Shown piece after piece: positions 21,408-31,218 of a DNA stretch of 64,000 bases. The stretch is from Sediminicoccus rosea (GTDB taxonomy: Bacteria; Pseudomonadota; Alphaproteobacteria; Acetobacterales; Acetobacteraceae). The stretch is taken from NCBI RefSeq assembly GCF_033547095.1, contig NZ_CP137852.1:861501-925500 (forward strand), written 5' to 3'. The position numbers and the translations under genes were made by a program. Position 1 is the first letter of the stretch, and each line of letters begins with the position of its first letter. The notes beneath the pieces were generated by a model. The model had not been told where the DNA came from, ran no database searches, and saw nothing but the letters and a program-made list of their open reading frames with translations.

Positions 21408-21821
21408 TCAGCCCCCCAGGACATGGCGGGTGAGGAAGACCACCGCCGCCGCCGTCGCCATGAAGACGCCGGTTGCCACGATGGAGCGCGGCGAGAGGCG
21501 CGCGAGGCCGCAGACGCCATGCCCGCTGGTGCAGCCCGAACCGAGCCGCGTGCCGAAACCCACCAGCAGCCCGGCGGCGATCAGCGTCAGCGGCCCGGCG
21601 GCCACATGCAGCGCGGGCGCGCCGGCCAGCGCCGCCCAGGCGAGCGGCGCGCCGATGAGGCCCGCGAGGAAGGCGATGCGCCAGGCGCGATCCGAACCGA
21701 TGCTGCCGGCCAGGATGCCGCTGATGCCGGCGATGCGCCCGAGCGTGAGCCAGAGCAGCAGGGCCGCGGCACCGATCAGGGCGCCGCCGGCGGCGGAGGC
21801 GAGGGGGGTGAAGCTCGTCAT
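21408..21821 (-). CDS. YeeE/YedE-family half transporter (first)
   Basis: A 137-residue membrane protein, partner of the next gene. It has the conserved LVGFGTRLGSGCTSGHGVCG motif, the hallmark of YeeE/YedE thiosulfate permeases, in which cysteines relay sulfur. Its ATG shares one base with the stop of the metallo-beta-lactamase gene (TGATG), so translation is coupled. The position between a persulfide dioxygenase-like enzyme and a thioredoxin fits sulfur-species transport. Confidence 0.9.
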   Translation of the reverse strand: MTSFTPLASAAGGALIGAAALLLWLTLGRIAGISGILAGSIGSDRAWRIAFLAGLIGAPLAWAALAGAPALHVAAGPLTLIAAGLLVGFGTRLGSGCTSGHGVCGLARLSPRSIVATGVFMATAAAVVFLTRHVLGG

Positions 21822-22693
21822 CACAGCACGTCCAGCGGAACCTTGAGGAAGCGCTTGCCGTCCGCCTCGGGCGCGGGGAGCTGCCCCGCATGCATGTTCA
21901 CCTGGATCGAGGGGATGATCAGGCGCGGCATGGCGAGCGTCGCGTCCCGCGCCTCGCGCATCGCCACGAAGGCACCCTCCGTCACGCCGTCGCGCACATG
22001 GATGTTGTCCGCGCGCTCGGCGGCGACGGTGGTCTCCCAGCGGATCTCGCGGCCATTGGGGCCGTAGTCGTGGCACATGAAGAGGCGCGTGGTGGGCGGC
22101 AGCGCCAGCACGCGCTGGATGGAGCGGTAGAGCAGCGCGGCGTCGCCGCCCGGGAAATCGGCCCGCGCCGTGCCGCCATCGGGCATGAACAGCGTGTCGC
22201 CCACGAAGGCGGCGTCACCCATCACATGCGTCATGCAGGCCGGCGTGTGGCCCGGCGTGTGCAGCGCGACGCAGGGCAGCGTGCCGACGCTGTAGGTCTC
22301 GCCATCGGTGAAGAGGTGGTCGAACTCGCGGCCGTCGCGCTGCCATTCGGTGCCTTCGTTGAAAATCTTGCCGAAGGTTTCCTGCACCACGGTGATGCGC
22401 TCGCCGATGCCGATCCTGCCGCCCAGCGCGCGCTGGAGATAGGGCGCGGCGGAGAGGTGGTCGGCATGGACATGCGTCTCGATCAGCCATTCGACGGTGA
22501 GGCCGCGTGCGCGCACATGCGCGATGATGGCGTCGGCCGAGCGGGTGGCGATGCGGCCGGCGGCGTAGTCGAGGTCGAGCACGCTGTCCACGATGGCGCA
22601 GGCGCTGGAGCCGGGATCCTTCACGACATAGCTGATCGTGTTGGTTTCCGCATCGAAGAAGGGCGTGACCTCGGGGGCGGGGTGGCCTGACAT
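21821..22693 (-). CDS. MBL-fold hydrolase, persulfide dioxygenase-like (Blh type)
   Basis: A 290-residue metallo-beta-lactamase-fold protein with THVHADHLSA (residues 73-82), HTPGHTP, GDTLFMPDGGTARADF and CHDYGPNG. These are the metal and glutathione-persulfide blocks of the ETHE1/Blh group. I choose the ATG at 22693 because AGGAGGT lies six bases before it; a frame starting 39 bases earlier lacks such a site. It should oxidise persulfide sulfur to sulfite. The TauE-type exporter upstream could then remove sulfite. Confidence 0.88.
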   Translation of the reverse strand: MSGHPAPEVTPFFDAETNTISYVVKDPGSSACAIVDSVLDLDYAAGRIATRSADAIIAHVRARGLTVEWLIETHVHADHLSAAPYLQRALGGRIGIGERITVVQETFGKIFNEGTEWQRDGREFDHLFTDGETYSVGTLPCVALHTPGHTPACMTHVMGDAAFVGDTLFMPDGGTARADFPGGDAALLYRSIQRVLALPPTTRLFMCHDYGPNGREIRWETTVAAERADNIHVRDGVTEGAFVAMREARDATLAMPRLIIPSIQVNMHAGQLPAPEADGKRFLKVPLDVL

Positions 22694-22724
22694 GGGGTGA
22701 CCTCCTGGATGGGGCGCGCGGGGC

Positions 22725-23498
22725 TCAGCCATGGCCGAGGGAGCGCCAGATGACGAAGCCCGCCACGACGAGCACGATGGCGGCGAAGATGCGGTTCAGC
22801 GTGTCGCGCCCGGTGGCGAGGTGGCGCGCGGCCTGCATGCCGAGCGCGCCGCCCAGGATGCCGCCCGCGATGAACTCGCCTGCGACGGTCCAGTCCACCA
22901 GGCCGGAGGCGGCGTAGTTCAACGCGGTCGCCAGGCCGAAGATGCCGACGGCGAGCAGCGAGGTGCCGACGGCGTGCAGCATGGGCATGCCGGTGGCGAG
23001 GATCAGGCCGGGCACGATGAGGAAGCCGCCGCCGATCCCGAAGAAGCCCGAGAGCAGCCCGACGCCGAGCCCGATGCCGCCGAGGCGCAGCGCCATGGCG
23101 CGGGTGAGCGGCGCCGCCGCATCCGCCGTGCCGCCCCGGCGCGGGCGCAGCATGGCGAGGCCGACGATCACCATCATCACGGCGAAGAGCAGAATGAGGC
23201 GTTCGCCATCCATCGCCTTGCCAAGGCTCGAGCCCGCCAGCGCGCCGGCCAGGCCGGTGGCGGCGAAGATGGCGGCCGCCGGCCAGCGCACATGACCGGC
23301 GCGCGCATGGCCCGCGAAATTCACGAAGGCATTCGCCGAGACGGCGAGCGCACCGGTACCGAGGGCCATGTGCGGTGAGAGGCCGACGGCGTAGAGCAGC
23401 AGCGGCGTGGCGACGATCGAACCACCGGCGCCGATCAGCCCCAGCACGAAGCCGACCAGGCCGCCCGAGCCGAGGGCGAGGAAGGCTTCGGTCATCAT
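22725..23498 (-). CDS. TauE/SafE-family sulfite exporter-like permease
   Basis: A 257-residue membrane protein of the TauE/SafE family with about eight helices and the two pseudo-repeats GLIGAGGSIVATPLL and GFFGIGGGFLIVPGLI. The start overlaps the stop of the ArsR gene (ATGA). In bigR-type operons a protein of this family is paired with Blh and is proposed to export sulfite. The same role is inferred here. Confidence 0.9.
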   Translation of the reverse strand: MMTEAFLALGSGGLVGFVLGLIGAGGSIVATPLLLYAVGLSPHMALGTGALAVSANAFVNFAGHARAGHVRWPAAAIFAATGLAGALAGSSLGKAMDGERLILLFAVMMVIVGLAMLRPRRGGTADAAAPLTRAMALRLGGIGLGVGLLSGFFGIGGGFLIVPGLILATGMPMLHAVGTSLLAVGIFGLATALNYAASGLVDWTVAGEFIAGGILGGALGMQAARHLATGRDTLNRIFAAIVLVVAGFVIWRSLGHG

Positions 23499-23896
23499 CG
23501 GGGCAGGCCCCAGCCGGTCACGGCGAAGAGCCCGGCCTCGCCCGTCGCGCGGGGTGGTTCGGCGGGCGTGGGTGCGGGTACGGGCGCGCGCTCACGCGGG
23601 GCAGGCGGCGGCCCGCCGATGGCGGCGCGCAGCGCCTCCAGCACCGCGGCGACGCGCGGATCGGCCAGGCTGTAGATGATGGATTTCGACTCGCGGCGCG
23701 TGGTGACCAGCCCCGCCTCGCGCAGCGCGGCGAGCTGCTGCGAGAGGTTGGGCTGGCGCAGGCCGAGCTCGCTCTCGAAGCCCGCCACCGCAAGCTCGCC
23801 ATCCAGCAGCCGGCAGAGGATGCGCAGCCGCATGGGATGCGCGAGGGCGCGCAGGAATTCCGCCGCTACCTCGGGGTCGCAGCCGAGCGCGCTCAT
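23495..23896 (-). CDS. ArsR-family regulator, BigR/SqrR-like context
   Basis: A 133-residue ArsR/SmtB winged-helix protein (LRALAHPMRLRILCRLLDGE, then LRQPNLSQQLAALREAGLVT and RRESKSIIYSL). Its C-terminal 35 residues are a Pro/Ala-rich extension. BigR and SqrR sense persulfides with two cysteines. Here only Cys6 and Cys28 exist; Cys28 (LRILCRLL) sits where the first sensing Cys would be, and the C-terminal partner is missing. The ATG at 23896 overlaps the peroxiredoxin stop. It probably represses its own operon from the inverted repeat at 24573-24604. Confidence 0.88.
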   Translation of the reverse strand: MSALGCDPEVAAEFLRALAHPMRLRILCRLLDGELAVAGFESELGLRQPNLSQQLAALREAGLVTTRRESKSIIYSLADPRVAAVLEALRAAIGGPPPAPRERAPVPAPTPAEPPRATGEAGLFAVTGWGLPR

Positions 23897-24558
23897 GGCT
23901 TCACCGCCTTGCGGGTCCGGGCGCCGGGCTGGTGGTACCAGGCGGGGGTGGCGCGGTGGGCCACCTCCTCCATGGTTTGCGGCGGGGGCAGCAGGCCGGG
24001 CTCGCCCGGGCGCCAGTCGGCGGGGGTGGAGAGGCCCGAAGCGTCGCTCTCCTGCAGGGCGGCCAGCGCGCGCAGCAGTTCCTCGACGCTGCGGCCGGTG
24101 CTCATCGGGTAATGCGCCAACAGGCGGATCATGCCGGCAGGGTCGATGAGGAAGGTGCCGCGCACCGTCGCGGTGCTTGAATCGCCCGGATGGATCATGC
24201 CGTAGGCGCGGGCCATGGCCATGGAGATGTCCTCGGCGACGGGAAAGGGGATGGCGATGCCGAACTCGGCCTCGATCGCGCGCAGCCAGGCGAGATGGGC
24301 GAAGAGGCTGTCCACCGAGAGGCCGAGCAGCTCGCAGCCCAGCGCCTGGAAGCGCGGATGGGCGCGGGCGAAGGCGATGAACTCGCTGGTGCAGACGGGC
24401 GTGAAGTCGGCCGGGTGGGAGAAGAGCAGCAGCCAGCGGCCGCGATAATCGGCGAGGCTGCGTTCGCCCATGGTGGTGCGCACGCGGAAGGGGATGGCGG
24501 GCGCGCCGAGGCGGGGCGCATCCGGGGCGGGTTCGGGGGAGGGAGGAAGATCTGACAT
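23893..24558 (-). CDS. 1-Cys peroxiredoxin (Prx6-like)
   Basis: A 221-residue peroxiredoxin with the catalytic HPADFTPVCTSEF (Cys56) and a long C-terminal domain, as in Prx6/1-Cys enzymes. No typical resolving Cys is visible. The late block PAGMIRLLAHYPMSTGRS matches the family. The ATG at 24558 gives the expected N-terminus; a frame nine codons longer is less likely. It is the first gene of the operon, directly behind a strong promoter. It reduces peroxides, possibly also inorganic polysulfide, with TrxC as a candidate reductant. Confidence 0.92.
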   Translation of the reverse strand: MSDLPPSPEPAPDAPRLGAPAIPFRVRTTMGERSLADYRGRWLLLFSHPADFTPVCTSEFIAFARAHPRFQALGCELLGLSVDSLFAHLAWLRAIEAEFGIAIPFPVAEDISMAMARAYGMIHPGDSSTATVRGTFLIDPAGMIRLLAHYPMSTGRSVEELLRALAALQESDASGLSTPADWRPGEPGLLPPPQTMEEVAHRATPAWYHQPGARTRKAVKP

Positions 24559-24572
24559 GGGGTTCGCCTTCG

Positions 24573-24610
24573 ATATACAAAACATAGTTTAGTAGATTGT
24601 ATATTGTCAA
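24573..24610 (-). promoter_or_regulatory. Sigma-70-type promoter with inverted repeat for the sulfur-stress operon
   Basis: Reading the minus strand, TTGACA (24605-24610) is followed after 18 bases by TATGTT (24581-24586). The eight-base arms ATATACAA (24573-24580) and TTGTATAT (24597-24604) form a perfect inverted repeat with a 16-base centre. They sit in the spacer and just after the -10 element, so a bound repressor would block polymerase. This AT-rich island contrasts with its surroundings. ArsR binding is inference. Confidence 0.7.
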
Positions 24611-24665: not shown

Positions 24666-25394
24666 TCAGGCCCGCGCGGTCAGCTCTTGCCAGGGCGCGC
24701 CGAACCCGGCGGCCAGCGCCTCGGCCGGCCCCGGCTTGAAGGCGGCGTAGAGCCCGCGGGCCCAGCCTTCCATGGGGTGCGGCCGGTGCAGCAGGCGGGC
24801 GAAGCCGAGGTCGCGCAGCAGGGGCGCCATCAGCGGCGGATTGGGCGCCCAGCCCGAGACCAGCGCGCCATAGGGCATGGCGCGGGTGGTGGCCGTGAGC
24901 ATGGGCCGCGCCTCGTCCAGCGCCGCCTGCGCCGTCTCCAGCAGCAGCACCTGGCCGGTGACGGCGGCCATGCCGCGCAGGGCGAGGATCGGGTTGAAGA
25001 GCTGCTCGAAAAAGGCGGTGGCCAGCACCAGGTCGAAGCAGCCGAATTCCGCCGTCAGCGCGCGCGGGTCGAGCACCATGGCCTGCGCCGCGGCCCCGGT
25101 GGCCTCCAGCGCCAGCATCGTCGCCGTGCCCGCCTCCGCGCCCGGCAGGCTCCAGGCCAGGTGGTCCGTCACCAGGGCGCTGGCCGCGCCGCGCCGCAGC
25201 GCCGCCAGGCTGAAGCCGCCATTGCCGGCGCCGACCTCGAGCAGCGCCATCCCGGCCAGCGGCAGGGGCGCGAAGAGCGCATCGGCCTCCGCTTCCAGCA
25301 CCGCCTCGGGCTTCGCCCCGGGCGTGACGAGGCCGGGCGCGAGGCGGAGGCTTTGCAGCCAGGGCAGGGCGGCGACCTGTGCGGCGAGCGTCAT
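24666..25394 (-). CDS. SAM-dependent methyltransferase, type B' (CmoB/DUF1698-like paralogue)
   Basis: A 242-residue class I methyltransferase-like protein and the last of four coupled paralogues. It opens WLQSLRLAPGLVTPGAKPEA. The SAM motif is LLEVGAGNGGFSLAALRRGA, with TDHLAW at the end of strand 2 and FFEQLFNPILALRGM in place of the FYHLxDPLDV of type A. Its nearest relative is the gene two upstream (26179-26934). The ATG overlaps the preceding stop as ATGA. The SAM pocket looks intact; the target is unknown. Confidence 0.82.
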   Translation of the reverse strand: MTLAAQVAALPWLQSLRLAPGLVTPGAKPEAVLEAEADALFAPLPLAGMALLEVGAGNGGFSLAALRRGAASALVTDHLAWSLPGAEAGTATMLALEATGAAAQAMVLDPRALTAEFGCFDLVLATAFFEQLFNPILALRGMAAVTGQVLLLETAQAALDEARPMLTATTRAMPYGALVSGWAPNPPLMAPLLRDLGFARLLHRPHPMEGWARGLYAAFKPGPAEALAAGFGAPWQELTARA

Positions 25395-26182
25395 GGCCGG
25401 AAGTCCCGCATCGCGCCCTCGGCGCCGAGGTCGCGCCATTCCATGCCGAAATTGGCGGACATGGCGGGCTCGGCACCCGGCAGGATGGCGGCGAAGATGC
25501 CACGCGTGCGGCTGCCCTCGGCCGGAAGGTAGTGCGGGTGATCGCGGTAGTAGATCCGCGCGAAGCCGAGCTGCCGCAGCAGGTGCAGCATCAGCGGCGG
25601 ATTCGGCCCCCACCAGTTGGTGTCGTCATTGGCCAGGGTCCGCCCCGGGTAGAAGACCATGGCCGGCTCCGCGCGCTCCAGCGCGTCCTGGTGGGTCTCG
25701 ACCAGCAGGACCTGGCGGGTCACGGCCCGCATGCGCTGCAGCACGTCGATCGGGTCGAACAGGTGGTAGAAGACGCCGAGGAAGAGCACGAGGTCGAACT
25801 GGCCGAGCGATTCATCCATCCGCGTCGGGTCGATCTGCAGCGTCTCGACCTCGAGGCCGAGCTCGGCGCGGGCGAGGTCGAAGGCTTCCCGGCCGCGATA
25901 GACCGGATGCGTCCAGGCGAATTCGTCGGTCGCCAGCACGCGGCCGGCGCCGCGCCGCTTGGCGGCGAAGGTGAAGGCGCCGTTCCAGGCGCCGATGTCG
26001 AGCACGGAGCGGCCGGTGAGGTCGAAGGGGCCGAGCAGCGCCTCCTCCTCGCGCCGCAGCACCGCGAGGCTCTTGGCGCCGGGCGTGACCAGGCCCGGCC
26101 GCAGCTCCAGCGAGTGGAACCAGGTGATGCGGCCGATCCGCGCCAGCAATTCCTGGTCGGAGAGATCGGTCCGGGCCGTCAT
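25391..26182 (-). CDS. SAM-dependent methyltransferase, type A' (CmoB/DUF1698-like)
   Basis: A 263-residue methyltransferase with SVLDIGAWNGAFTFAAKRRG (motif I), LATDEFAW (motif II) and FLGVFYHLFDPIDVL, which echoes the GVLYHRxxPLDHL motif of CmoB/DUF1698 proteins. The middle holds LLVETHQDAL and TNWWGPNPPLM. It is clearly similar to the gene at 26931-27713 over its whole length. It overlaps both neighbours by four bases. CmoB acts on tRNA wobble uridine, but relatives act on other molecules, so the substrate is open. Confidence 0.85.
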   Translation of the reverse strand: MTARTDLSDQELLARIGRITWFHSLELRPGLVTPGAKSLAVLRREEEALLGPFDLTGRSVLDIGAWNGAFTFAAKRRGAGRVLATDEFAWTHPVYRGREAFDLARAELGLEVETLQIDPTRMDESLGQFDLVLFLGVFYHLFDPIDVLQRMRAVTRQVLLVETHQDALERAEPAMVFYPGRTLANDDTNWWGPNPPLMLHLLRQLGFARIYYRDHPHYLPAEGSRTRGIFAAILPGAEPAMSANFGMEWRDLGAEGAMRDFRP

Positions 26183-26934
26183 GCGGCCTGCGGATGGGTG
26201 AGGTTGATCCAGGGGGTGTGGAACCCCTCCAGCAGGCCATCGGGCGCCTCTGGCAGGAAGGCCGCGTAGAGGCCGCGCGCGGTGCCCAGCGTCGGGTGGT
26301 CGCGGTAGAGCACGCGGTTGAAGCCGAGGTCGGTCAGCAGGTGCGTCATCAGGGGACGATTGGGAGCCCAGCCGAAGACCCAGGCGCCCTCGGGCCCGCC
26401 GATCGGCAGCGTCTGCCCATGGCCCATCATCAGCGGGCGGGTATCGGCCAGGCCGTCCTGCAGCGTCTCGATCAGCAGCACGCGCTCGGTCACGGCGCGC
26501 ATGCCGCGCAGCGCCTGGATCGGGTTGAAGAGCTGCTCGAAGCAGGCCGTGGCCATCACCACGTGGAAATTGCCGAAGCGCGGCGTCAGCTCGCGCGGGT
26601 CGAGCGGCGACATCTCGAGGCTGGCGCCCAGCGCATGCGCGGCCCATTGCGTGGCCGAGAGCGCGTCGCTGCCCGGCAGGGTCCAGGCCAGGTGGTCGGT
26701 CGCCAGCACGCGGGCCGCGCCGCGGCGCAGGGCGGCGAAGCTGAAGGCGCCGTTGCCCGCGCCGACCTCCAGCACATGCGCGCCCTTGAGGTTCAGCGTG
26801 TCAAGCAGCGCGGCCTCCTCGGCCTGGAGCTGCGCTTCCGGCTTGAGGCCGGGGGTGACGAGGTCGGGGCGCAGGCGCAGGCTCTGCAGCCAGCGATGGC
26901 CGGCGACGGCGGCGCGGAGTTCGGCCTCGCTCAC
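26179..26934 (-). CDS. SAM-dependent methyltransferase, type B (CmoB/DUF1698-like paralogue)
   Basis: A 251-residue paralogue. It starts at GTG, overlapping the stop of the first gene (GTGA). Motifs are VLEVGAGNGAFSFAALRRGA, LATDHLAW and CFEQLFNPIQALRGM. The C-terminal part keeps APNRPLMTHLLTDLGFNRVL and YRDHPTLGTARGLYAAF, shared with type A. Compared with type A it replaces the DIGAWNG core by EVGAGNG and the YH pair by EQ, so its chemistry may differ. The long frame that extends further upstream is an artefact of the open strand. Confidence 0.82.
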   Translation of the reverse strand: MSEAELRAAVAGHRWLQSLRLRPDLVTPGLKPEAQLQAEEAALLDTLNLKGAHVLEVGAGNGAFSFAALRRGAARVLATDHLAWTLPGSDALSATQWAAHALGASLEMSPLDPRELTPRFGNFHVVMATACFEQLFNPIQALRGMRAVTERVLLIETLQDGLADTRPLMMGHGQTLPIGGPEGAWVFGWAPNRPLMTHLLTDLGFNRVLYRDHPTLGTARGLYAAFLPEAPDGLLEGFHTPWINLTHPQAA

Positions 26935-27713
26935 GGCGTCAGCAATCCTTCGATGGCGCCGGGCACGTCCAGGTCCAGCCAATTGGAATCGAAGCCGCGC
27001 ACCAGGCTGTCCTCCACCTCGGGCGTGAAGGCGGCATAGACGCCGCGGGCGCGGCCGAGCGTCGGGTGGTCGCGGTAGAAGATGCGCGTGAAGCCGAGCT
27101 GCAGCAGCAGGCTGAGCATGAGGGCGGGGTTGGGGCCCCACCAGTTCGTCGCGTCCTGGTTCAGGATGTCGCTCGGGTAGAAGACCATGCCGGGCTGCGC
27201 CGTGCCGAGCAGGTCCTGGTGGGTCTCCACCAGCAGCATCTGCCGGGTGATGCGCCGGAGGCGGGCCATCACGTCCAGCGGGTCGTAGAGGTGATAGAAG
27301 ACGCCCAGGAACATCACCACGTCGAAGAGGCCGAGCTTCTCCGTGATGTCGGGCGGGTCGATCATCTTGGCCTCGATCTCGAGGCCGAGTTCGTCGCGGG
27401 CCAGTTCGAAGGCCTCGCGCCCGCGCCAGACGGGGTGGTTCCAGATGTAGCTGTCGGTCGCCAGCACGCGGGCGGCGCCGCGCCGCTTGGCGGCGAAGCT
27501 GAAGGCGCCATTCCAGGCGCCGATGTCCACCACGCTGCGGCCGGTCAGGTCGAAGGGGCCGAGGAAGGCCTCCTCCTCCTGCGCCAGGATCGCTTCCGTC
27601 TTGCCGCCGAAGGTCGTCAGGCCCGGCCGCAGCGGGATCGAATGCCACCAGTGGAAGGACTGCATGCGCGCGAGCAGTTCGGCGTCCGAGAGACGGGCGG
27701 TGGGCAGGTTCAT
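26931..27713 (-). CDS. SAM-dependent methyltransferase, type A (CmoB/DUF1698-like)
   Basis: First of four coupled methyltransferase genes, 260 residues. It has FHWWHSIPLRPGL, the SAM motif VVDIGAWNGAFSFAAKRRGA, LATDSYIW and FLGVFYHLYDPLDVM. TNWWGPNPALM and FYRDHPTLGRARGVYAAF complete the family pattern. I start at the ATG at 27713, which aligns with the type A' start; an ATG at 27749 is possible. It is divergent from the DadA-like gene with 70 bases between them, and the SAM synthetase metK is 1.5 kb away. Confidence 0.85.
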   Translation of the reverse strand: MNLPTARLSDAELLARMQSFHWWHSIPLRPGLTTFGGKTEAILAQEEEAFLGPFDLTGRSVVDIGAWNGAFSFAAKRRGAARVLATDSYIWNHPVWRGREAFELARDELGLEIEAKMIDPPDITEKLGLFDVVMFLGVFYHLYDPLDVMARLRRITRQMLLVETHQDLLGTAQPGMVFYPSDILNQDATNWWGPNPALMLSLLLQLGFTRIFYRDHPTLGRARGVYAAFTPEVEDSLVRGFDSNWLDLDVPGAIEGLLTP

Positions 27714-27783: not shown

Positions 27784-29046
27784 ATGCATGTCCTGATCCT
27801 CGGTGCCGGCGTCACCGGCCTCGCCACCGCTCGCGCCCTGGCCGAGGAGGGGCACGCGGTGACGGTGCTGGATGCCGAGCCCCGGGTGGGGCAGGGGGCC
27901 AGCTTCGCCAATGGCGGGCAGCTGTCCTATAGCTATGTGGCGCCCTTCGCCGGCCCCGGCGTCATCGGCAAGGTGCCGCACTGGATGCTGGACCCGGACG
28001 GCCCGCTGCGCTTCCGGCCGCAGGCCGATCCCGGCCAATGGGCTTGGCTCATCGCCTTCCTGCGTGCCTGCAATCCCGCGACGGCGGAGCTGACCACCCG
28101 CCGCCTGCTGCTGCTGAGCTACCTCTCGCGCGACCTGATGCGCGAGCTGGCGGCGCGGGAGGGGTTCGACTTCGCCTTCGCCCCCGCCGGCAAGCTGGTG
28201 CTGCAGCCGGATGAGGCCGCCATGGCCGGCGCCCGCCGCCAGATGGAATTGCAGGCGAAGTGGGGGACGGAGCAGCGCGCCCTCTCGCGCGAGGAATGCC
28301 TGGCGCTGGAGCCGGCGCTCGGCCACATCGCCCACCGCATCGCCGGCGGCATCCACACGGTGAGCGAGGATGCCGGCGATTGCCGCATGTTCTGCGAGGG
28401 GCTGGCGGCCAGCCTCGCGCGCTCCAATGCGGGCGTGACCTTCCGCCTGGGCCTGCGCGCCACCCAGATCATCCGCGCCGAGGGGCGGGTGCGCGGCGTG
28501 ATGACGAGCCAGGGCGTGATCGAGGCGGATGCGGTGGTGCTGGCGCTGGGCGTCGGCGCGCGGGCGCTGGCCCGGCCCCTCGGGCTTGACCTGCCGGTCT
28601 ATCCGCTCAAGGGCTATTCGCTGACGCTGCCGATCCAGCGTGACGACGCGGCGCCGCGGATCAGCGTGACCGACAGCGCGGCGAAGCTGGTCTATGCGCG
28701 CATCGGCCGGCGGCTGCGCGTCGCGGGGATGGCGGATGTGGTGGGCTATTCCACGGCCTTCGAGGAGAAGCGCCTGACCAGCCTGGTGCGCCAGGCCCGC
28801 GCCGCCTTCCCCGAGGCGACCGATTGGCGCGAGCTGAACCCCTGGGCCGGGCTGCGCCCGGCAACGCCGACCGGCCTGCCCATCCTGGGCCGCGCGCCGG
28901 GGATGGAGGGGCTCTACCTCAACCTCGGTCAGGGCTCGCTCGGCTTCACGCTGGCCATGGGCAGCGCCGCCGTGCTGGCGGCGGAGATCGCGGGGCGCGC
29001 GCCACCCATTCCGTTGGATGGATTCCGGATGGGTTCGATGCCTTGA
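27784..29046 (+). CDS. D-amino-acid dehydrogenase-like FAD oxidoreductase
   Basis: A 420-residue FAD-dependent oxidoreductase of the DAO/DadA family. It has the dinucleotide fold VLILGAGVTGLATARALAEE at the start, then GASFANGGQLSYSYVAPFAGPG typical of DadA, and the C-terminal FAD motif NLGQGSLGFTLAMGSAAVLA. It oxidises a D-amino acid (or related amine) to the 2-oxo acid, feeding electrons to the respiratory chain. Same direction as metK 143 bases downstream; divergent from the methyltransferase quartet. Confidence 0.9.
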   Translation: MHVLILGAGVTGLATARALAEEGHAVTVLDAEPRVGQGASFANGGQLSYSYVAPFAGPGVIGKVPHWMLDPDGPLRFRPQADPGQWAWLIAFLRACNPATAELTTRRLLLLSYLSRDLMRELAAREGFDFAFAPAGKLVLQPDEAAMAGARRQMELQAKWGTEQRALSREECLALEPALGHIAHRIAGGIHTVSEDAGDCRMFCEGLAASLARSNAGVTFRLGLRATQIIRAEGRVRGVMTSQGVIEADAVVLALGVGARALARPLGLDLPVYPLKGYSLTLPIQRDDAAPRISVTDSAAKLVYARIGRRLRVAGMADVVGYSTAFEEKRLTSLVRQARAAFPEATDWRELNPWAGLRPATPTGLPILGRAPGMEGLYLNLGQGSLGFTLAMGSAAVLAAEIAGRAPPIPLDGFRMGSMP

Positions 29047-29189: not shown

Positions 29190-30377
29190 ATGCGCGACAA
29201 GGGCGAATACCTGTTCACTTCGGAGAGCGTCTCCGAAGGCCACCCCGACAAGGTCGCGGATCGCATCAGCGATACCGTGCTCGACACCTTCCTCGAACAG
29301 GACCCGTATGCCCGCGTGGCGTGCGAAACTCTGGTCACCACCAACCGCGTGGTCATCGCCGGTGAGGTTCGCGGCCCCGCCTCGATCACGCCCGAGCTGC
29401 TGATGCACAAGGCGCGGCTGGCGATCCAGGATATCGGCTACGAGCAGGAAGGCTTCCACTGGCAGAACGCCCATGTGGAGTGCCACCTGCACGCGCAGTC
29501 CGCGCATATCGCGCAGGGCGTGGACGCGGCCGGCAACAAGGATGAGGGCGCCGGCGACCAGGGCATCATGTTCGGCTATGCCTGCACCGAGACGCCCGAC
29601 CTGATGCCCGCGCCGCTCTACTACGCGCACCTGATCCTGCGCCGCATCAGCGAGATGCGCCGCAATGGCGATGTGGCCGTGAAGGGCCTGCTGCCCGACG
29701 CGAAGAGCCAGGTCACGCTGCGCTATGTGGACGGCAAGCCCGTCGGCGCCACCTCGGTCGTCGTCTCGACGCAGCATGAGGAAGGCCTGGAGCAGGCGCA
29801 GATCAAGGCGATGCTGAAGCCGCTGATCGAGACCTCGCTCCCCGCCGGCTGGATGTGCCCGGACAACGAGCTCTATATCAACCCGACCGGCACCTTCGTG
29901 ATCGGTGGCCCGGACGGCGATTGCGGCCTGACGGGGCGCAAGATCATCGTGGACACCTATGGCGGCGCGGCCCCGCATGGCGGCGGCGCCTTCTCCGGCA
30001 AGGACCCCACGAAGGTGGACCGCTCGGCCGCCTATGCCGCGCGCTACGTGGCGAAGAACGTGGTGGCCGCCGGCCTGGCCGATCGCTGCACCATCCAGGT
30101 CTCCTACGCCATCGGCGTGGCGAAGCCGCTCTCGGTCTATTTCGACCTGCACGGCACGGGCAAGGATGTGGACGAGGTGAAGCTCGCCAAGGTCGTCCAG
30201 GACCTGGTGAACCTCTCGCCGCGCGGCATCCGCGAGCACCTGCACCTGAACCGCGCGATCTACGTGCCGACCTCCAGCTACGGCCATTTCGGCCGCACGC
30301 CGGATGAGGAGAAGGGCACCTTCACCTGGGAAAAGACCGACCTGGTCCCCGCGCTGAAGGCGGCCTTCGGGCGCTGA
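29190..30377 (+). CDS. metK: S-adenosylmethionine synthetase
   Basis: Makes SAM from methionine and ATP; cytoplasmic tetramer. The 395-residue protein has the N-terminal [32 protein letters not shown] (methionine/ATP loop) and [19 protein letters not shown] (P-loop-like signature). The ATG at 29190 gives the usual N-terminus. Upstream is the structured leader, downstream a hairpin repeat and then trmB. Its SAM feeds TrmB and the four methyltransferases nearby. Confidence 0.98.
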
Positions 30378-30513: not shown

Positions 30514-31218
30514 ATGACATCTGACATTCCTTCCGACGCGGACGACTGGCCCGAGGGGATTCCGCATCGCCTCTATGGGCGGCGGCGCGGCAAGAAGCTG
30601 CGCGCGCGGCAGGAGAAGCTGCTGGCCGAGGCGCTGCCGCGGATCCGCTTCACCGACCTGGATTTCGCGGCAGGCGCCGATGCGCTCTGGTTCGAGGTGG
30701 GCTTCGGCGGCGGCGAGCACACGCTGGCGCAGATGCAGGCCAACCCCGACACCGCCATCATCGCGAGCGAGGTGTATGAGCACGGCCTCTGCTCCCTGCT
30801 CACCGAAATCATCCCCGAGGGCGCGGAAGCCACCTCGCCCCTGCCGCCGCGCCTGCGCCTCTGGCCCGAGGATGCGCGGGAATTGCTGATGGCGCTGCCG
30901 GAGGCGAGCCTCTCGCGCCTCTTCCTCATGTTCCCCGACCCCTGGCCCAAGGCGCGCCACGCCAAGCGGCGCTTCGTGCATCCCGAGATGCTGCCCATCG
31001 TGGCGCGCGCGCTGAAGCCCGGCGGCATCTGGCGCGTGGCGAGCGATGACCCGACCTACCAGGCCTGGGTGACCGAGGTCTTCGCCGCGCAAACCCTGTT
31101 CACGGGCGAAGCGCCTGCCACCACGCGGCCGGAGGGCTGGCCGCCCACGCGCTACGAGGCCAAGGCGCTCGCCGCCGGGCGCCGGCCGCTCTATTGGGAA
31201 TGGCGCCGCGGCGCCTGA
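30514..31218 (+). CDS. trmB: tRNA (guanine-N7)-methyltransferase
   Basis: Methylates N7 of G46 in tRNA variable loops using SAM. The 234-residue protein has FEVGFGGGEHTLAQM (SAM motif I), ASEVYEHGL, LFLMFPDPWPKARHAKRRF (the TrmB signature with the catalytic Asp) and a C-terminal substrate block. It lies 136 bases after metK in the same direction, with the dispersed repeat between them. The ribosome site is weak. Confidence 0.95.
   Translation: MTSDIPSDADDWPEGIPHRLYGRRRGKKLRARQEKLLAEALPRIRFTDLDFAAGADALWFEVGFGGGEHTLAQMQANPDTAIIASEVYEHGLCSLLTEIIPEGAEATSPLPPRLRLWPEDARELLMALPEASLSRLFLMFPDPWPKARHAKRRFVHPEMLPIVARALKPGGIWRVASDDPTYQAWVTEVFAAQTLFTGEAPATTRPEGWPPTRYEAKALAAGRRPLYWEWRRGA

What the first reader, a model, noticed from the sequence alone, without database searches (positions are those of the whole stretch)
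24666..27713. Four coupled methyltransferase paralogues in an A-B-A'-B' order beside metK
The first and third genes are close relatives (DIGAWNG, GVFYHLxDP) and the second and fourth form a divergent type (EVGAGNG, FEQLFNP). All four overlap by four bases. This reads as duplication of a two-gene unit that may work as A-B heteromers. Type B changes the conserved Tyr-His and core motif, so it may be a regulatory or altered-specificity partner. The SAM synthetase gene is close by. I know of no described system with this arrangement.
Basis: partly seen in the sequence, partly recalled or inferred. Interest (0 to 1): 0.75.

Follow-up and report, generated by a model that had tools for sequence, protein, structure and literature searches.

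The report
Duplicated methyltransferase gene pair in Roseococcus
Some Roseococcus-type bacteria carry an unstudied methyltransferase gene that overlaps, in one operon, a copy of itself whose most conserved residues (probably those of the active site) are changed although the copy is still kept up by selection, and in this genome the pair is present twice.

Summary
Four minus-strand genes (A1, B1, A2, B2) overlap by 4 nt each; A1/A2 are 63% identical, B1/B2 59%, A versus B 38-46%. Trees group A1 with A2 and B1 with B2. A2 and B2 are old branches, not recent copies of the adjacent A1 and B1 (AU p 3.7e-45 and 0.009), so the two-gene unit was duplicated, or gained, as a unit. The site (trmB-metK-oxidase-[A]) is shared in the genus and holds no gene, A, A-B or A-B-A-B. 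B-type was found only in this genus, 13 of 13 times behind A; A alone is common. Of 18 positions invariant in 36 outside relatives, A keeps 18 and B 9; B has Gln for His23 and His140 in 13 of 13 and has lost Tyr139, yet B1 is under purifying selection. Most likely A is a SAM methyltransferase of the CmoB-like/TIGR04290 superfamily and B an active-site-altered partner made in step with it. A complex was not tested; the substrate is unknown. A CmoB-type tRNA role is disfavoured (no cmoA, no trhO found). metK adjacency is background synteny. New variant of a known kind; moderate interest.

The parts
26931..27713 (-). A1: CmoB-like/TIGR04290-like class I SAM methyltransferase, 260 aa, first gene of the operon
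26179..26934 (-). B1: diverged paralogue with altered conserved residues, 251 aa, GTG start, overlaps A1 by 4 nt
25391..26182 (-). A2: second A-type methyltransferase, 263 aa, overlaps B1 by 4 nt
24666..25394 (-). B2: second B-type paralogue, 242 aa, overlaps A2 by 4 nt; highest dN/dS of the four in each of the three comparisons of the three four-gene genomes
27784..29046 (+). FAD-dependent oxidoreductase (PF01266 DAO), divergent neighbour; its 70-bp gap to A1 presumably holds the operon promoter (inference)
29190..30377 (+). metK, S-adenosylmethionine synthetase; conserved neighbour, not part of the operon
   Evidence: start read from the ORF translation
30514..31218 (+). trmB-type methyltransferase (PF02390; gene name by recall); conserved neighbour, not part of the operon

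Best explanation
A-type proteins are active SAM-dependent methyltransferases of the CmoB-like/TIGR04290 superfamily, probably with a small-molecule or cell-envelope substrate that is not identified. B-type proteins arose from an A-like gene within the Roseococcus group, kept the SAM-binding core, and exchanged family-invariant residues of the probable active site (H23 to Q, Y139 to E/D/T, H140 to Q, and the F134-V137 loop). A and B are made in step by stop/start overlap and most likely form an A-B heteromer in which A catalyses and B is an accessory subunit that shapes stability, substrate binding or SAM response. The whole A-B unit was later doubled, or gained a second time, to give two such enzymes in this genome. 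Shown: gene structure, paralogy, overlap of genes, residue changes, purifying selection, distribution. Inferred: catalysis by A, loss of catalysis by B, the complex, the substrate class.
For: Of 18 positions invariant in 36 of 36 outside rows, A (at least 18 of 19 rows) keeps 18 and B (at least 12 of 13) keeps 9; at 34 of 36 or more the counts are 33 and 21 of 38. H23 and H140 are Q in 13 of 13 B, while SAM-site positions G64, G68 and D86 are kept in 13 of 13. E. coli CmoB Tyr200-His201 align with the invariant Y139-H140; Tyr200 is named as contacting the transferred carboxymethyl group (passages of PMC7496830). A2 and B1 are predicted as confident class I folds, pLDDT 94.2 each, A2 nearest to CmoB, B1 nearest to a methyltransferase with bound SAH, with CmoB from rank 16. 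The A1-B1 junction is a 4-nt overlap in 9 of 10 species and +4 nt in G006. All 13 B genes lie directly behind an A gene. B1 dN/dS is 0.11-0.27 in six comparisons, like A1 at 0.12-0.34. A1 and B1 distances correlate after removing flanking-gene distance: partial r 0.87, p 0.0001 with 9 species; 0.42, p 0.016 with 8.
Against: No test of a physical complex was possible. A stands without B in six congeners and in the strong matches outside the genus, so B is not needed for the ancestral activity. B keeps an acid (E) in motif I and D86, so it may still bind SAM and methylate something. Overlapping genes also occur between enzymes acting in sequence. The rate correlation could reflect shared history of linked genes, and much of it hangs on G007. 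The A-type proteins of this genus are not wholly typical either: H231, conserved in at least 34 of 36 outside rows, is absent from 19 of 19.
Confidence: 0.5

Rival explanations
1. B is an independent methyltransferase with changed specificity or regiochemistry. A and B act one after the other on one substrate, and the second pair serves a related substrate.
For: SAM-site positions are kept in 13 of 13 B. B has its own invariant residues (L16, Q17, R20, F120, Q134, N137, G144, G188 and others), as expected of a re-tooled site. Purifying selection and gene overlap also fit.
Against: Residues lost include nine that are invariant in 36 of 36 outside rows, with no obvious new catalytic residue. No pathway gene common to the loci was recognised.
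Confidence: 0.3
2. Lineage-specific duplicates kept for dosage or by drift, with B on the way to decay and no distinct role.
For: Patchy distribution, with the site empty in three congeners; B2 evolves fast, dN/dS 0.20-0.47.
Against: B1 is as constrained as A1. B has 77 invariant columns of 13 rows against 98 for the 13 A rows of the same species. 13 of 13 B genes are open frames of 239-252 aa without a stop, and the overlap with A is kept in species whose A1 is about 60% identical to the window's.
Confidence: 0.13
3. The proteins act on the tRNA wobble uridine like CmoB, as mo5U34 or cmo5U34 methyltransferases.
For: CmoB is the nearest solved structure of A by sequence and by fold, and Tyr200-His201 are conserved in A.
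Against: No CmoA over the cut-off in any of 21 genus genomes; 9 of 21 have weak matches, best 34.6 bits against 193.3. Of 14 control genomes 9 ring, E. coli among them, one over the cut-off. No TrhO domain (UPF0176_N; link to TrhO recalled) in 21 genomes, while 6 of 14 controls ring, E. coli and Caulobacter among them. A scores 47-53 bits against the CmoB cut-off of 275 and is about 60 aa shorter, with the alignment starting at CmoB residue 117-121. A is absent from five congeners.
Confidence: 0.05

Closest known systems
TIGR04290 family methyltransferase (Rta_06860 type, function unknown)
   Same: Best NCBIfam match for all four proteins, over about 110-150 residues. Single-gene relatives share the W-x-H-S, DIGAWNG/DG and GVxYH motifs.
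   Different: All four lie far below the curated cut-off of 300 bits (A2 84, A1 75, B1 40, B2 25). B lacks the shared His, Tyr and His.
CmoB, tRNA uridine-34 carboxymethyltransferase
   Same: Nearest solved structure of A; aligned Tyr200-His201.
   Different: No CmoA over cut-off in the genus, shorter N-terminus, far below the CmoB cut-off.
Heteromeric methyltransferases with a non-catalytic paralogue (Trm6-Trm61, METTL3-METTL14; recalled; a paper on heteromeric tRNA enzymes, PMC6382703, seen only as the start of its abstract)
   Same: Two paralogues of one fold, of which one keeps and one loses the conserved active site, kept together.
   Different: Those named are eukaryotic and act on RNA (recalled). 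Here the pair is bacterial, seen in one genus only, of unknown substrate, and the complex is not shown.

Membership tests
TIGR04290 (meth_Rta_06860) | score over the curated cut-off of 300 bits | tested here: not met
   A2 84.2, A1 74.5, B1 39.8, B2 25.0 bits
CmoB (TIGR00452) | score over the curated cut-off of 275 bits | tested here: not met
   A1 47.3, A2 53.4, B1 18.4 bits; B2 not listed
CmoB (TIGR00452) | partner CmoA supplying carboxy-SAM | tested here: not met
   0 of 21 genus genomes over the cut-off, 9 of 21 with weak matches; E. coli among the 9 of 14 controls that ring, 1 of 14 over the cut-off
CmoB (TIGR00452) | Tyr200 and His201 in the active site | tested here: met
   aligned to Y139-H140, present in 19 of 19 A and 36 of 36 outside rows; not met by 13 of 13 B
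CmoB (TIGR00452) | Lys91 and Arg315 contacts to carboxy-SAM | not testable with these tools
   both lie outside the aligned stretch; residues named in PMC7496830 (passages)
Pfam PF08003 Methyltransf_9 (DUF1698) | gathering score 23.8 bits | tested here: met
   A1 29.3 and A2 32.3 bits; B1 and B2 not listed at E 0.01, so not met by B
class I SAM methyltransferase fold | Rossmann methyltransferase fold and SAM motif I | tested here: met
   models of A2 and B1, pLDDT 94.2 each, match class I methyltransferases; G64, G68 and D86 kept in both types; A1 and B2 not modelled
heteromeric methyltransferase with inactive paralogue | paralogous pair with one active site lost | tested here: inconclusive
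   paralogy shown; B keeps 9 of 18 positions invariant outside, A 18 of 18; activity not assayed
heteromeric methyltransferase with inactive paralogue | physical A-B complex | not testable with these tools
   no multimer prediction or binding data available

The most novel reading that the evidence does not exclude
B is a dedicated bacterial pseudo-methyltransferase, a SAM-binding but non-catalytic subunit that assembles with A. The genus preserves stages (none, A, A-B, A-B-A-B) of an enzyme gaining an inactive partner and then doubling the whole complex at one chromosomal site.
Probability: 0.33. Interest if true: 0.6.

Novelty: new variant of a known kind. Interest (0 to 1): 0.38.

Why it matters
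If the A-B complex is real, it gives a compact case, seen in one genus only, of an enzyme acquiring a catalytically altered paralogue as partner, with living relatives at each stage at one locus. Homomer-only and heteromer forms of the same methyltransferase could then be compared directly. It also marks a branch of CmoB-like methyltransferases for which I found no assigned substrate.

Tried and rejected
tRNA wobble methylation in the manner of CmoB or a mo5U34 enzyme: weakened by absence of cmoA (over cut-off) and of the TrhO domain in 21 genomes. Substrate from gene neighbourhood: inconclusive. Of 34 outside loci (L070-L103), 31 were put to (L082, L084 and L101 were left out) and 22 had 1.8 kb on both sides; their 44 immediate neighbours (mechanical gene calls) were scanned. 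Glycosyltransferases flank 3 (L092, L093, L095), a sugar epimerase and a GH114 gene flank 1 (L088), and the other 18 showed no sugar gene and no common theme; several neighbours matched no family. Single cases: A-type overlapping lpxK by 4 nt in G202, and glycosyltransferases further off near the members in G185 (L141) and L102. metK as a functional link: rejected, the neighbours persist without A or B.

Recent tandem duplication of A1-B1 into A2-B2 in this lineage: rejected by AU tests (the groups were tested after earlier trees had been seen). B as sister of A1+A2 only (A+B one clade): not rejected, p 0.058. All single genes as one clade: p 0.043. G010 and G018 singles with the other three singles, as the flanking genes would have it: rejected, p 0.004. 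So B's exact point of origin is open; an older duplication with differential loss, or transfer, may be involved. Remnants of A or B in the empty loci: none better than E 0.009. A count of conserved positions chose positions partly by their conservation in A; one search repeats it with positions chosen from the outside rows alone. Papers: TIGR04290 gave 0 papers, DUF1698 with methyltransferase 0, Roseococcus with methyltransferase 8, all listed, none on this topic by title or abstract start. Searches (15 of 40 listed; 5; 7) on heteromeric or inactive methyltransferase paralogues listed no bacterial pair like this by title or abstract start.
Full report
What is there. The minus strand of 24666-27713 holds four genes in the order A1 (27713-26931), B1 (26934-26179), A2 (26182-25391), B2 (25394-24666). 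Each overlaps the next by 4 nt. A1-A2 identity is 63%, B1-B2 59%, A-B 38-46%. In the window's own genome (5.14 Mb, 98.7% complete) A1 as query finds these four places at E 6.6e-49 or better and one other at 1.8e-4. The divergent neighbour is an FAD-dependent oxidoreductase gene (27784-29046), followed by metK and a trmB-type gene. metK is therefore one gene away and on the other strand.

Family. All four proteins hit TIGR04290 best, but below its cut-off (A2 84, A1 75, B1 40, B2 25 bits against 300). A1 and A2 also hit CmoB weakly (47 and 53 bits against 275). Pfam Methyltransf_23 and Methyltransf_9 are passed by A1 and A2 and not by B1 and B2. A profile of A-type and related proteins finds CmoB first among solved structures (E 2.4e-13 to 8.4e-11). 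Foldseek with the A2 model (pLDDT 94.2) also puts CmoB first. The B1 model (pLDDT 94.2) is an intact class I fold; its first Foldseek matches are another small-molecule methyltransferase with bound SAH, and CmoB follows from rank 16. A1 and B2 were not modelled.

Distribution. The genus of the window (named neighbours: Roseococcus, Rubritepida, Sabulicella) has 21 genomes held. 16 have a match at E 1e-20 or better, 5 have none. By gene content (for the 15 relatives, for the window): A-B-A-B in 3 (G000, G009, G019), A-B in 7, A alone in 6. Outside the genus I searched samples: 299 genomes of the family with A2 (63 match at E 1e-10) and the same 299 with B1 (14 match at E 1e-15), 395 of the order with B1 (17 match at E 1e-20), 385 of the class with A2 (6 match at E 1e-20, the window's among them), and 78 loci kept from the capped genome-contig scan. 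These sets overlap, include genus members, and score a limited number of candidates per genome. In one search every match outside the genus is a gene that A2 also finds, with a lower score for B1. No A-B tandem was listed outside the genus; among L055-L103 a second family member at E 1e-18 appears only in the eight loci L055-L061 and L064, all of the genus. In L090 an overlapping second methyltransferase gene lies beside the member, but it is no close relative (best family match E 0.10).

Fixed locus. In 14 of the 15 relatives with the gene, A starts next to the same oxidoreductase gene; in G007 none was found there and metK is next. metK lies behind the oxidoreductase in 12 of those 14; G006 has metK elsewhere and G017's contig ends first. 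Three genomes without A or B (G003, G011, G013) keep oxidoreductase-metK-trmB with no A or B remnant better than E 0.009; in G014 and G020 the contig ends there. So the neighbours do not depend on A or B, and the stages none, A, A-B and A-B-A-B all sit at one site.

History. Trees of 32, 71 and 38 proteins give B as one group (100/100), and A1+A2 of the A-B species as one group (99/92 and 96/89 in the two trees with outside rows). In those two trees A2 branches before all A1 (97/80 and 94/87 for the A1 group); in the tree without outside rows this is unresolved. B2 is an unresolved early branch of B. Holding A2 with its own lineage's A1 is rejected (p 3.7e-45), and so is B2 with its B1 (p 0.009) (tested after earlier trees had been seen). 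Both members of the second pair are thus old, which fits duplication of the A-B unit at the base of the A-B species followed by losses, or gain of a pair as a unit; I cannot separate these. A midpoint-rooted tree of metK, trmB and the oxidoreductase puts all A-B and A-B-A-B genomes and G013 in one group (88/91) (G017 has 40% of columns). B groups with the single genes of G004, G010 and G018 (96/94 and 94/91), on a long branch. Tests leave A+B as one clade possible (p 0.058) but reject the single genes following the flanking-gene tree (p 0.004), so B's root is open.

Active site. Chosen from outside rows alone, 18 positions are invariant in 36 of 36; A (at least 18 of 19 rows) keeps 18 and B (at least 12 of 13) keeps 9. 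At 34 of 36 or more, A keeps 33 and B 21 of 38; the A-type proteins of the genus themselves lack H231 (0 of 19). Among 42 positions conserved in 19 of 19 A and at least 75% of outside rows, B keeps 23, switches 6 to another residue in at least 12 of 13, and loses or mixes 13. Kept are G57, G64, A65, G68, G78, A79, D86 and W90 around the SAM site, and fold residues. Changed are H23 (Q in 13 of 13), D62 (E in 13 of 13), W66 (kept in 2 of 13), F134, L135, G136, V137, Y139 (E 9, D 2, T 2), H140 (Q in 13 of 13), Y178, D186, T188 and N189, among others. Y139-H140 align with Tyr200-His201 of E. coli CmoB; paper passages name Lys91, Tyr200 and Arg315 as contacting the carboxymethyl group (PMC7496830). 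That the loop after strand 4 holds the transfer site in this fold is recalled. B is therefore a methyltransferase fold that probably still binds SAM but has lost or rebuilt the transfer site.

B is not decaying. 13 of 13 B genes are open (239-252 aa). dN/dS of B1 is 0.11-0.27 in six comparisons, against 0.12-0.34 for A1; A2 is 0.13-0.25 and B2 0.20-0.47, three comparisons each, so B2 is the least constrained. A1 and B1 have the same mean distance (0.40) and correlated distances beyond the flanking genes: partial r 0.87, p 0.0001 for 9 species, 0.42, p 0.016 without G007. The A1-B1 junction overlaps by 4 nt in 9 of 10 species and is +4 nt in G006; B1-A2 is -4, -4, +13; A2-B2 is -4, -4, -4.

Mechanism. 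I take A as the catalytic methyltransferase and B as an active-site-altered partner made in like measure through overlapping genes, most likely in an A-B heteromer (0.5). The main rival is that B is a second methyltransferase of changed specificity acting in sequence with A (0.3). The data do not decide between them. The substrate is unknown: no CmoA over the cut-off (0 of 21) and no TrhO domain (0 of 21) argue against wobble-uridine chemistry, and neighbourhoods of outside relatives share no theme, with sugar-related immediate neighbours in 4 of 22.

Judgement. The obligate A-B unit as a family property does not, since A is often alone. The arrangement is a lineage-specific variant of a known evolutionary theme, an enzyme with a degenerate paralogous partner. 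In the searches made here I found no paper on it.

Noticed in passing
window 26811-26904, plus strand: ARAGORN calls a tRNA-Ser(tga) antisense inside the conserved B1 coding sequence; almost surely a false positive.
   Followed up: partly
L094 7971-8684; L090 8010-8687: In a Phenylobacterium bin (L094) and an alphaproteobacterial bin (L090) a family member sits right behind a succinate dehydrogenase flavoprotein gene (8-9 bp). In L094 a 2Fe-2S/4Fe-4S subunit gene follows 13 bp on; in L090 an overlapping, unrelated methyltransferase gene follows.
   Followed up: partly
L103 7983-8735: In a Thermoplasmatota archaeon a family member lies 66 bp upstream of metK on the same strand, a second closeness to metK.
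   Followed up: no
L133 5844-7609: In G202 the single A-type gene overlaps lpxK by 4 nt behind DUF374 and KDO transferase genes, hinting at a lipid A or envelope link in that lineage.
   Followed up: partly
window 21821-24585, minus strand: Downstream of B2 lies a separate sulfur/redox set: 1-Cys peroxiredoxin, ArsR-type regulator, TauE/SafE exporter and a metallo-beta-lactamase-fold protein. The peroxiredoxin, exporter and lactamase-fold genes are also beside the operon in G009; they were not seen in the other 14 loci, several of which end soon after the operon.
   Followed up: partly
G004, G010, G018 single genes (L040, L041, L042): These single genes keep the A-type residues yet group with B rather than A in the trees, against the flanking-gene tree; possibly the unaltered orthologues of B.
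   Followed up: partly
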